From: Candidatus Methanomethylophilaceae archaeon
GTDB lineage: Archaea > Thermoplasmatota > Thermoplasmata > Methanomassiliicoccales > Methanomethylophilaceae
Assembly: GCA_017507885.1 (NCBI GenBank)
Contig: JAFVZY010000077.1
Location: forward strand, 1 to 49,270
Direction of reading: 5' to 3'
DNA: 49,270 bases
A model generated the notes under the pieces. The model saw only the letters and a program-made list of their open reading frames with translations, was not told the DNA's origin and did not search any database. Position numbers and translations under genes: made by a program. This document shows positions 2,043-35,155 of the stretch, piece after piece; within the stretch, counting starts at the first letter, position 1, and each line of letters begins with the position of its first letter.

Positions 2043-3076
2043 GAACTGTCTCCCGGTGTGACTGTGAACTTGTAGATGTTGTTCCTCCTCTCCACGCCGA
2101 ACTTCACGTCCAGGAACGATTCGAGGGTATCCATCTGACTGAGAAGGTGTTTGCTGATGCGCGAGACCGAGAAGCTGCTCTTCCCGTCGGCCATGGCCAT
2201 GTACGGCAGGAGCTGGTCCGCAGTGTGGACGTCCATGGTGGCCCCGCTGTTGATCTCCCTGATGAGGTCCAGGGCTGCATCCTCGCCCGCTATGTCTGCG
2301 GTCCTTCCGCGGGACGTGAGGGCGTTGCTTCCCAGCATGCCGTTGTCGAACTCCGCCACCAGGGCGATTCCCGCACCGCGGGAGTCTCCCTCGGTCTTCT
2401 GGATCTCGATGTCCACGTCCGCCAGAGGGGACAACGCGTTCTCGCATCCCTCCGCGATCTCCTTGGTGATCCAATCCGGGAGGCGTTGGCTGAAGCAAAC
2501 ACCGCGGATGGCCCTCAATTCCCCCAAATCGTCCAATTGCAACGGGCTGATCCTGCCTATGGGGTTCAATGTGGCCATCACGCGGCCGCCTCCCTGTGGA
2601 TAGAACCCGCGATCGAGGATGTGGGCGTCCGCATGGATGCCCATCCTCCTCATCAACGGGAAAAGGAGATGCTGGTACGAGTCTATGGGGGGTGCCCACA
2701 TGACGTTGGTGCCACCGCTGATGTCCATGGTGAGCCTTTCCTTGTGGTTGCGGGCCGCCAGAAGCATGGCCTGCAACACGAGGCTGACGCTCCCCGCGGT
2801 TCCGATGTTCATCTGGATGTCGTTGACCTCCTCGTCCCCGGGGATGAAGTAGAGTTCCCTGGAACCTATGACGTTGCCCTCGACCTTGGATCCCGCCATC
2901 ATCGCGACCGCGTTCACGGCCGCACAATGCTGTTTCGACAGACCGTTGGTCGGTCTGTTCTCCCTGATGCGGGTCAGACGGGTCGGTATGCCCGTGACCG
3001 TGGCCATGGCAACGGAGGTGCGGACCATCTGTCCTCCGCCCTCTCCCCTGGATCCGTCTATCTCCACTGTTTCCAT
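2039..3076 (-). CDS. rtcA: RNA 3'-terminal phosphate cyclase
   Basis: 345 residues, full length. It uses ATP to convert an RNA 3'-phosphate to a 2',3'-cyclic phosphate through an enzyme-AMP intermediate. Signatures are the N-terminal SRGEGGGQMVRTS, a central GGTNVMWAPP and HILDRGFYPQGGG, and C-terminal VHTADQLLPYMA with the His expected to carry AMP. An upstream TTTTTAA box near 3100 puts transcription close to the ATG. It heads a two-gene unit with the riboflavin-pathway reductase; no functional link between the two is obvious. Confidence 0.93.
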   Translation of the reverse strand: METVEIDGSRGEGGGQMVRTSVAMATVTGIPTRLTRIRENRPTNGLSKQHCAAVNAVAMMAGSKVEGNVIGSRELYFIPGDEEVNDIQMNIGTAGSVSLVLQAMLLAARNHKERLTMDISGGTNVMWAPPIDSYQHLLFPLMRRMGIHADAHILDRGFYPQGGGRVMATLNPIGRISPLQLDDLGELRAIRGVCFSQRLPDWITKEIAEGCENALSPLADVDIEIQKTEGDSRGAGIALVAEFDNGMLGSNALTSRGRTADIAGEDAALDLIREINSGATMDVHTADQLLPYMAMADGKSSFSVSRISKHLLSQMDTLESFLDVKFGVERRNNIYKFTVTPGDSS

Positions 3077-3159
3077 TGTTTCCTCAATTATAGAGGTGGT
3101 TAAAAACCTATTCGGAATCCTGACGACCGTTTCCCGCAGGGTGCATGATGGAGAAGAGA

Positions 3160-3234
3160 TGGTGCGATTGCCGGGAATCGAACCCGGGTCAGAGGCTTGG
3201 GAAGCCCCCGTCCTAACCGCTGGACTACAATCGC
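3160..3234 (-). tRNA. tRNA-Gly (anticodon CCC)
   Basis: On the minus strand, acceptor GCGATTG pairs with CAATCGC. The D stem is GTCC/GGAC, the anticodon stem GGGGC/GCCTC holds loop TTCCCAA, and the T arm is CCGGG-TTCGATT-CCCGG. Discriminator A is followed by an encoded CCA (3160-3162). A TATA-like AATAAAAT lies about 30 bases upstream. No intron is seen. Confidence 0.95.
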
Positions 3235-9173: not shown

Positions 9174-10319
9174 TCAGTTCTTCAGTCTGACCTTCCCACG
9201 GTTGTTGACATAGTTCACCAGGTTCATCCCGGTGAGTTCCACGCTGGATGGCCCGGAACGGACGTAGAACAGTTCGGTTTTGCCCTCCTTGAGGAACACG
9301 GCCTTTCTGGTGGGGTCGCATTTGACCCTGAGCACCAGGCGCCCCTCCTCCATCTCGATGAGTTTGAAGTTGATGTAGGGCAGGAAGCTGTTGCCGATGG
9401 TGCTGGCGATCATGTTGGTGAAATGGAGGTTCAGCTTGTCCTCGTTCTCGAAGCTCTCGATGTCGATGCCGCAGACGGAACCGTCGTCGGAGACCCCGAC
9501 GAGAAGGGTTCCGCCGTCGGAGTTCATGAAGGCCACGAGGGTCTTGAGCACGGCCTTCTCCATCCTCTTGTCCGTCTCCCCCGTCTGGAGGTTCGTCCTC
9601 AGGGTGGATTTGAATTCCAGTCTCTCGGACTCCCCGTCGTGGATCATCTCGAGGATGTCCATCCTCTCCCTGTCGGCGAGACCGAGGACGCCTGAATTGT
9701 CGTCGAGGAACTGGTTGACGGTGAGTCTGAACAGGGGGTGGTCCCTGTATCTGATGTACAGCAGGTTGACTATGATCGCGCCCAGGGTGACCCCGAGCAT
9801 ACCGTTCATGACCGTGTCCATCGGCTGCGGGGTGTAGATGGACCAGACCTTGGCGAGATAGTGTTGGGCCATCATCATGAACGCGTAGACGGACATCGCC
9901 ACGGAGCTGGAGAATCCCGCGACGATCAGGGGGTTCTCGTCCCTGAGTCCGGGTGTGGATTTCATCAGGATGAACACCGCGATCAGACCCAGTAGGGCGA
10001 GGTTGATTCCGGACACTATGCTGGAGACCATCACAAGGGCCCAGGACCCGTCTCCGAACACCCTGGTGGCCAGTCCCAGGTAGAACGACAGGATCATCAG
10101 GAGCATGGTCGCAGGGGGGATGTTTATCGCCTTCCTGTCGCTGACGACGGCGGCGATCAGGATGGCCATGAACGGGACGGTGAGCACGAGGTCGCCGCTC
10201 TCGCCGGCGTACAGGCCGATGGCGACGACCACGATGGTGGCGACCAGGGCCAGGATGTACAGTCCGGTCGGCGTGTCCCTCCATCCCTTCCTCTTCTCGG
10301 AGGGGGTTTCTTTATTCAT
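9174..10319 (-). CDS. Membrane protein with C-terminal AlbA_2 (Schlafen-type) domain
   Basis: 381 residues. The first ~190 residues contain about six hydrophobic segments (for example LYILALVATIVVVAIGLYAG and VMVSSIVSGINLALLGLIAV). The cytoplasmic C-terminal half carries an AlbA_2 domain: SERLEFKSTLR, AVLKTLVAFMNSDGGTLLVG, VSDDGSVCGID, then NSFLPYINFKLI and a basic C-terminal extension. AlbA_2 domains are linked to nucleic-acid binding and occur in putative regulators. An ATTATAAAG box at 10341-10349 gives a leaderless start. It diverges from the hairpin-rich candidate RNA gene about 80 bases away. Confidence 0.8.
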   Translation of the reverse strand: MNKETPSEKRKGWRDTPTGLYILALVATIVVVAIGLYAGESGDLVLTVPFMAILIAAVVSDRKAINIPPATMLLMILSFYLGLATRVFGDGSWALVMVSSIVSGINLALLGLIAVFILMKSTPGLRDENPLIVAGFSSSVAMSVYAFMMMAQHYLAKVWSIYTPQPMDTVMNGMLGVTLGAIIVNLLYIRYRDHPLFRLTVNQFLDDNSGVLGLADRERMDILEMIHDGESERLEFKSTLRTNLQTGETDKRMEKAVLKTLVAFMNSDGGTLLVGVSDDGSVCGIDIESFENEDKLNLHFTNMIASTIGNSFLPYINFKLIEMEEGRLVLRVKCDPTRKAVFLKEGKTELFYVRSGPSSVELTGMNLVNYVNNRGKVRLKN

Positions 10320-10395: not shown

Positions 10396-10403
10396 TTATA
10401 TAA
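10396..10403 (+). promoter_or_regulatory. TATA box of the candidate structured RNA
   Basis: TTATATAA on the plus strand in a stretch with no reading frame downstream. It predicts transcription from about 10424-10428, just before the first hairpin at 10440. Confidence 0.5.
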
Positions 10404-10423
10404 ACATGGACGTATGTCATGGA

Positions 10424-10711
10424 ATCGTGCAGGGGATGACGGCCCCGAAGGGCCGAGTACCTTGAGGGTACCAGTCATAATGGTCTTATGACCAATCGAT
10501 AACAATCGACAGGTTGCCGATTGTTATCTCCATCCGGAATCCTCCATTCCGGTACCTTTTGAAGGTAAACACATATTCGCCTCCTACCGAAACATGGTTC
10601 CGTGGCAGTCGGGGAGTACCAGTCCCTGGTTGACCACGGACTTACCATTCCAGTATTTATGTATGGATGTTGTTATATATTAATGTAATCACGTGAGTAC
10701 AGGATTTTTTT
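10424..10711 (+). ncRNA. Candidate novel structured RNA with seven consecutive hairpins
   Basis: A gene-free stretch with seven non-overlapping inverted repeats in 200 bases. Stems lie at 10440-10445/10450-10455, 10457-10461/10467-10471, 10474-10480/10486-10492, 10498-10508/10518-10528 (11 bp, perfect), 10534-10540/10546-10552, 10553-10558/10562-10567 and 10599-10605/10634-10640; the last encloses a further GGGA/TCCC pair. Loops are 3-9 bases, except in the last hairpin. A TATA box sits at 10396-10403 and a T-run at about 10705-10711 could end the transcript. The tRNA, RNase P and SRP RNA signatures I could recall are absent. The limits are inferred from promoter and T-run only. Confidence 0.5.
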
Positions 10712-35079: not shown

Positions 35080-35155
35080 GGGCCCGTGGGGTAGCTTGGT
35101 ATCCTTCTTGCTTGGGGTGCAAGTAACTCCAGTTCAAATCTGGGCGGGCCCACCA
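35080..35155 (+). tRNA. tRNA-Pro (anticodon GGG)
   Basis: Acceptor GGGCCCG pairs with CGGGCCC; anticodon stem CTTGC/GCAAG holds loop TTGGGGT; the T loop is TTCAAAT. CCA is encoded at 35153-35155. A CTTTTTAAAC box at 35045 is about 30 bases upstream, between rpoN and the tRNA. Confidence 0.95.

What the first reader, a model, noticed from the sequence alone, without database searches (positions are those of the whole stretch)
10396..10711. A probable new structured RNA: seven perfect hairpins in a row behind a TATA box
Between a membrane AlbA_2 gene and a small basic protein gene lie about 550 bases without a credible ORF. They contain seven consecutive perfect inverted repeats of 5-11 bp, the fourth of 11 bp, laid end to end over 200 bases. 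A TATA box is correctly spaced upstream and a T-run lies downstream. It is not a tRNA, and I do not see the RNase P or SRP RNA signatures I know. Chains of short stems could be a regulatory RNA, a protein-binding scaffold, or protein-binding DNA palindromes.
Basis: partly seen in the sequence, partly recalled or inferred. Interest (0 to 1): 0.78.

Follow-up and report, generated by a model that had tools for sequence, protein, structure and literature searches.

The report
Multicopy archaeal microprotein gene with antisense
The row of hairpins is a small gene read from the opposite strand: it encodes a 28-amino-acid protein of an unrecorded family present in up to eleven copies per genome in gut methane-producing archaea, its messenger RNA folds over its own ribosome-binding site, and a second promoter faces it as in bacterial toxin/antisense-RNA pairs, which as far as I could find are not reported from archaea.

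Summary
The hairpins are real and more than chance, but they are not a plus-strand non-coding RNA in an ORF-free gap. The element (about 10396-10688) belongs to a multicopy family: 4 copies in this genome, 1-11 in 52 of 147 Methanomassiliicoccales genomes, none elsewhere in the class sample, and absent from Rfam 15. Covariation supports the helices. The key conserved plus-strand stretch UCACCUCCU is, on the minus strand, a Shine-Dalgarno site (AGGAGGUGA). A 23-32-codon ORF starts about 7 nt after it (window: GTG 10572 to TAA 10486, VFTFKRYRNGGFRMEITIGNLSIVIDWS). A peptide profile matches 67 copies, all on minus; codon substitutions show protein-level selection; AlphaFold2 gives a confident three-stranded beta sheet. 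UTR hairpins flank the ORF and the 3'UTR pairs with the SD. Positioned TATA boxes lie at both ends and face each other; the plus one is the stronger, so an overlapping antisense RNA is likely. Best reading: a self-occluded microprotein mRNA with a cis-antisense RNA, an architecture like a type I toxin-antitoxin module. Toxicity and transcription are untested, and the peptide is not a typical hydrophobic toxin.

The parts
10396..10404 (+). TATA box of the plus-strand (antisense) transcript; start site expected near 10424
   Evidence: TATA-like octamer at -29..-20 in 74/86 copies (shuffle max 19); forward orientation favoured 37:11, A-rich BRE-like bases upstream
10424..10650 (+). Predicted antisense RNA (3' end unknown) fully overlapping the microprotein mRNA
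   Evidence: Inference from the positioned promoter; no conserved plus-strand ORF
10672..10688 (-). TATA-like box of the minus-strand mRNA (TTACATTAATATATAAC read on minus); start expected near 10650
   Evidence: Positioned box in 50/86 copies (shuffle max 15); weaker than the plus one
10425..10652 (-). Predicted microprotein mRNA
   Evidence: R2 covariance match 142 bits at 10422-10663; minus strand folds better than plus in 69/88 copies
10590..10655 (-). 5' UTR hairpin domain (P8 with H7; arms 10599-10605 / 10634-10640)
   Evidence: H7 in the family: 5 of 8 pairs have changes on both sides, up to six pair types at one pair
10577..10588 (-). Shine-Dalgarno GGTAGGAGGCGA (core AGGAGG 10580-10585), 7 nt before the start codon; also the 3' strand of P1 in plus coordinates
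   Evidence: Complement of the 16S 3' end GGATCACCTCCT seen in two relatives
10486..10572 (-). Microprotein ORF: GTG start 10570-10572, TAA stop 10486-10488; 28 aa VFTFKRYRNGGFRMEITIGNLSIVIDWS
   Evidence: Profile match E 2.5e-15 (the window peptide is among the seeds), whole-genome profile match E 6.5e-11, exact coordinates
10498..10528 (-). 11-bp hairpin H4 inside the ORF, formed by the codons of beta strands 2 and 3
10440..10471 (-). 3' UTR hairpins H2 (10457-61/10467-71) and H1 (10440-45/10450-55)
   Evidence: 96-98% of cells paired in 30 sequences; H2 pair with all four of C-G, U-A, G-C, A-U
10428..10438 (-). 3' UTR strand of P1 that pairs with the Shine-Dalgarno site
   Evidence: Co-evolution test: mean duplex -11.4 kcal/mol vs -9.9 (sd 0.25) when partners are swapped, 0/2000; mean SD pairing with 3' UTR 0.63 vs 0.27 with shuffled 3' UTR, 0.40 in the window copy itself

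Best explanation
The element is a multicopy microprotein gene on the minus strand, overlapped by a convergent antisense transcription unit on the plus strand. The minus-strand mRNA (from about 10650) carries a 5' hairpin domain, a Shine-Dalgarno site, a 28-codon ORF and two 3' hairpins. The 3' UTR pairs with the Shine-Dalgarno site, so the full-length mRNA is translated poorly by default. The plus-strand promoter makes an RNA complementary to 3' UTR, ORF and Shine-Dalgarno site, which should silence the mRNA further. The peptide, a small three-stranded beta sheet, would be made only when the antisense RNA is lost or the mRNA is refolded or processed. This is the logic of a type I toxin-antitoxin module, and I think it works like one. 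Shown here by computation: family, ORF, frame-specific selection, helices, positioned promoters. Inferred: both transcripts, silencing, toxicity. My step-wise probabilities: microprotein gene 0.93; Shine-Dalgarno occlusion by 3' UTR 0.7; antisense RNA 0.6; toxin-antitoxin-like function 0.35.
For: Peptide profiles (two seed sets) match 67 of 94 copies, all on the minus strand; 41 called intact ORFs of 23-37 codons, nearly all 23-32, with an SD and canonical start. pN 0.26 vs pS 0.47 in frame, substitutions by codon position 693/385/814, and the contrast is lost or inverted in shifted frames. A whole-genome search with the peptide profile finds 39/147 genomes of the order. AlphaFold2 pLDDT 96.1 and 93.5 for two subfamilies, both three-stranded. 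The UTR helices covary. The SD pairs with the 3' UTR. Face-to-face positioned TATA boxes. Patchy distribution, 1-11 copies, tandem arrays, frameshifted copies (two of four in this genome) and no constant gene neighbour, all usual for toxin-antitoxin modules.
Against: No transcript or toxicity data. The peptide is not a transmembrane helix (window peptide GRAVY 0.01; only 7 of 41 reach a mean hydropathy of 1.6 over 19 residues), unlike most type I toxins. About half of the copies are not called intact, and several with a clear peptide have no canonical start codon in frame after the SD. The minus-strand TATA box is weaker than the plus-strand one. In the window copy the SD pairs with the 3' UTR with probability only 0.40 and has GGAGGCGA rather than GGAGGTGA. 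G-U/A-C counts in the UTR helices do not favour either strand.
Confidence: 0.5

Rival explanations
1. A multicopy microprotein with an ordinary, non-toxic cellular role (a small beta-sheet adaptor or binding peptide) whose translation is set by mRNA structure; the plus-strand TATA box makes a regulatory or no functional RNA.
For: Protein-level selection, confident fold and structured UTRs are all explained; the peptide is not membrane-like; a small ribbon-helix-helix gene lies directly upstream on the same strand in seven copies from four genera, which could be a regulator.
Against: Patchy presence, 1-11 copies, tandem arrays and frequent decay are unusual for a housekeeping microprotein; the plus promoter is the better conserved one, also in copies without an intact ORF.
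Confidence: 0.38
2. A plus-strand structured non-coding RNA is the main product; the ORF on the other strand is incidental.
For: Strong plus-strand promoter with BRE-like bases; covarying helices; no Rfam match.
Against: Profile matches only on minus, frame-specific pN/pS, SD-start-stop arrangement, confident peptide fold, better minus-strand folding energy in 69/88 copies.
Confidence: 0.06
3. A non-autonomous mobile cassette or repeat (MITE-like) that happens to carry a decaying micro-ORF.
For: Multicopy, dispersed, tandem; an IS110 element sits at the SD of two copies in one genome.
Against: No terminal inverted repeats or target duplications were noticed at the ends of dispersed copies (by eye only); the copies of this genome are 69-73% identical rather than recent; selection on the peptide.
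Confidence: 0.06

Closest known systems
Type I toxin-antitoxin modules with 3'-overlapping antisense RNA (bsrG/SR4, txpA/RatA; C. difficile CD2517.1-RCd8 type)
   Same: ORF under 60 aa, two overlapping genes in convergent orientation, structured mRNA with hidden Shine-Dalgarno site, multicopy and patchy (small hydrophobic protein, convergent overlap and SD sequestration as described in PMC6563280 and PMC8309996; the rest from my own knowledge)
   Different: Archaeal; beta-sheet peptide rather than a hydrophobic transmembrane helix; toxicity and antisense RNA not demonstrated
aapA/IsoA and hok/sok type I modules (from my own knowledge; hok/sok also in PMC8309996)
   Same: Small toxin mRNA whose 3' part folds back and keeps the Shine-Dalgarno site closed until processing
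   Different: No sequence relation; here the antisense promoter lies at the 3' end of the mRNA
SymE/SymR (from my own knowledge)
   Same: An antisense-controlled small protein that is not a membrane peptide
   Different: SymE is about 113 aa with an AbrB-like fold; this peptide is 28 aa with no detected relation
Methanosarcina mazei sRNA162 and similar archaeal regulatory RNAs (PMC3510493)
   Same: Archaeal small RNA locus with antisense targets
   Different: No relation known; here the opposite strand encodes a conserved peptide

Membership tests
Type I toxin-antitoxin | Toxin ORF shorter than 60 aa | tested here: met
   23-37 codons, nearly all 23-32, in 41 intact copies
Type I toxin-antitoxin | Cis-antisense RNA overlapping the toxin mRNA | tested here: inconclusive
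   Positioned plus-strand promoter in 74/86 copies; no RNA data
Type I toxin-antitoxin | Peptide is toxic when overexpressed | not testable with these tools
   Needs an experiment
Type I toxin-antitoxin | Antisense RNA neutralises the toxin mRNA | not testable with these tools
   Needs an experiment
Type I toxin-antitoxin | Hydrophobic peptide with a transmembrane helix (usual, not universal) | tested here: not met
   Beta-sheet prediction and low hydropathy
Type I toxin-antitoxin | Shine-Dalgarno site hidden in mRNA structure (frequent) | tested here: met
   Mean SD pairing 0.86, 0.63 with the 3' UTR against 0.27 for shuffled 3' UTRs
Known Rfam RNA family | Score at or above a gathering threshold | tested here: not met
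   Window, and 20 homologous loci: only tRNAs
Archaeal RNase P RNA | RF00373 match at this locus | tested here: not met
   The RNase P RNA lies at G000:C1:5941-6234
Known protein family | Pfam, NCBIfam or PDB sequence match of the peptide | tested here: not met
   None in Pfam or NCBIfam; best PDB E 0.15
IS110 bridge RNA | Encoded in the non-coding end of an IS110 element | tested here: not met
   Only 3 loci near an IS110-like ORF, two of them insertions into the element
Riboswitch or leader element | Constant downstream gene on the same strand | tested here: not met
   No recurrent downstream gene family among 253 neighbouring ORFs

The most novel reading that the evidence does not exclude
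The first type I-like toxin-antitoxin family of archaea, encoding a roughly 28-residue three-stranded beta-sheet toxin unlike known type I toxins, amplified to as many as eleven copies in gut methanogens.
Probability: 0.3. Interest if true: 0.85.

Novelty: new variant of a known kind. Interest (0 to 1): 0.63.

Why it matters
A 2025 study states that type I toxin-antitoxin systems were known only from Proteobacteria, Firmicutes and Tenericutes before its cyanobacterial case (PMC12390103). An archaeal module of this architecture would extend the mode of control to a second domain, and the multicopy micro-gene gives directly testable constructs. Apart from toxicity, it is a widespread, unrecorded microprotein family of a size that standard gene callers usually miss, a very small confidently predicted all-beta fold, and a caution that conserved 'ncRNA' helices can be read from the wrong strand.

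Tried and rejected
Plus-strand anti-Shine-Dalgarno sRNA: UCACCUCCU equals the 16S 3' end and is more conserved than its P1 partner, so I first read it as an anti-SD regulator; the minus-strand folding bias and A-C excess, then the ORF, showed that it is the complement of a real SD. RNase P RNA, Rfam families and a riboswitch with a constant downstream gene were rejected. DNA palindromes for protein binding: rejected because of UTR covariation and codon-level selection. Phage or plasmid origin: no meaningful match in phage or plasmid records, no exact motif in IMG/VR. Poly-T terminator: not significant. Fold search gave no significant relative (all E above 1; several dsRNA-binding-domain sheets among the weak hits).

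Full report
Observation. The seven inverted repeats, the 11-bp fourth one and the upstream TATA box are present at the stated places. Both strands fold far better than dinucleotide shuffles (z -5.06 and -4.86). Rfam has no match in the window or in 20 homologous loci, and the RNase P RNA of this genome lies elsewhere.

A family. A DNA search with the region found three further copies in the same genome (C54, and two in tandem on C26; 69-73% identity) and distant copies in relatives. A covariance model from five copies (R1), then one from 30 full-length copies (R2), found 52 of 147 genomes of the order at E <= 0.001, in 9 of 30 genera, with 1 to 11 copies each, including seven in a single-contig genome of 1,488,669 bp (by size probably Candidatus Methanoplasma termitum, my inference). 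In a sample of 400 genomes of the class, all 29 positive genomes belong to the same order. A motif scan of named genomes returned Methanomethylophilaceae and Methanoplasma assemblies (rumen and termite gut among the sources named), besides single matches in unrelated bacteria that look like chance.

Structure. On the 30-sequence alignment, 48 pairs are formed in 83.9% of cells against 74.7% in shuffles and 27-43% in slid controls; 151 cells changed on both sides against 50.7 (0/500). An unbiased helix scan picks H7, H4, the inner P8, H2 and H1. The long-range helix P1 co-evolves: mean duplex energy -11.4 against -9.9 with swapped partners (0/2000).

Which strand. The alignment shows more A-C than G-U cells on plus, and the minus strand folds better in 69 of 88 copies. 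In the UTR helices alone the counts are even, so this was a hint, not proof. The best conserved plus-strand stretch, UCACCUCCU, is the complement of AGGAGGUGA; the 16S 3' end GGATCACCTCCT was read in two relatives.

The ORF. On minus, a start codon a few nucleotides after this site opens a frame of about 28 codons that ends in the H3 loop. In the window: SD core 10585-10580, GTG 10572, TAA 10488-10486, peptide VFTFKRYRNGGFRMEITIGNLSIVIDWS. Two peptide profiles match 67 of 94 copies, all on minus and none on plus at E < 0.05; 41 have an SD, canonical start and stop in one frame. In frame pN is 0.26 and pS 0.47, and second codon positions change least; shifted frames lose or invert the contrast. 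A whole-genome six-frame search with the peptide profile, which does not use the RNA model, gives 39 genomes and nearly all the same loci. No Pfam, NCBIfam or PDB relative. AlphaFold2 predicts a three-stranded sheet with mean pLDDT 96.1, and 93.5 for a second subfamily; the pTM of such short chains is low (0.53, 0.48) and no unrelated control peptide was run. Fold comparison gives nothing significant.

Anatomy of the gene. In minus orientation: promoter, 5' hairpin domain P8/H7, SD, ORF (H6, H5, H4 within it, H3 at the stop), 3' hairpins H2 and H1, then the strand that pairs with the SD. In 37 intact copies the SD is paired with probability 0.86, of which 0.63 with the 3' UTR, against 0.27 after shuffling the 3' UTR. 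The window copy is weaker here (0.40).

Promoters. TATA-like boxes stand at a fixed distance outside both ends: 74/86 copies on the plus side (shuffle maximum 19) and 50/86 on the minus side (maximum 15). The plus box is better in its plus orientation (37:11) and has A-rich BRE-like bases upstream; it is equally present in copies without an intact ORF. So a plus-strand antisense RNA is likely, but no transcript data were available.

Interpretation. Small ORF, hidden SD, convergent overlapping antisense unit, multicopy, patchy, tandem and often decayed: this is the architecture of a type I toxin-antitoxin module. The reviews consulted describe type I toxins as usually small hydrophobic proteins under 60 aa with a transmembrane domain, and convergent overlapping pairs as one arrangement (PMC6563280), and SD sequestration by the antitoxin for bsrG/SR4 (PMC8309996). 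Type I systems were known from three bacterial phyla before a cyanobacterial case (PMC12390103). The hydrophobic-helix feature is not met here, and toxicity and neutralisation cannot be tested by computation; I therefore say it works like such a module with moderate probability and do not file it as a member.

Limits. Copy counts come from draft genomes; the TATA motif is nearly palindromic, so orientation evidence is modest; ORF calls in degenerate copies depend on my start and SD rules, and some clear peptides lack a canonical start codon. The peptide seeds were chosen from the same copies that the profiles then match, so the strand-specificity and pN/pS tests carry more weight than the E-values. 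Literature searches covered open-access papers only.

Noticed in passing
L162:1376-2963 and L163 (G033:C1): An IS110-type element of about 1.6 kb (99.4% identical between the two sites) is inserted at the Shine-Dalgarno region of two different copies of the micro-gene, as if the conserved motif were its target.
   Followed up: partly
L076:2034-2297 and 2975-3217, L059:1879-2148, L075:1024-1323, L130:1870-2166, L139:762-890: A small ribbon-helix-helix-like (CopG-like) gene lies within about 400 bp upstream of the microprotein ORF on the same strand in seven copies from four genera; 32 copies of that gene occur in 147 genomes.
   Followed up: partly
L035, L133, L167, L172, L177: Iron-siderophore-type ABC transporter genes (my reading of the sequences) flank the element in up to five loci, and helicase-like genes in four; chance or preference not tested.
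   Followed up: no
G003:C9, G009:C35 and C38, G018:C4, G028:C36, G007:C1:1060933: A second subtype has a different 3' UTR and extends P8 over the SD, so there the SD seems closed from the 5' side; two of these copies share the same flanking genes, apparently with a diphthine synthase gene beside them.
   Followed up: partly
window 9177-10319 (-): The neighbouring membrane protein does carry a Schlafen AlbA_2 domain (E 4e-19).
   Followed up: yes
window 35080-35155 (+): ARAGORN reports a tRNA-Pro (ggg) that Rfam's tRNA model did not list at gathering score; possibly unusual or doubtful.
   Followed up: no
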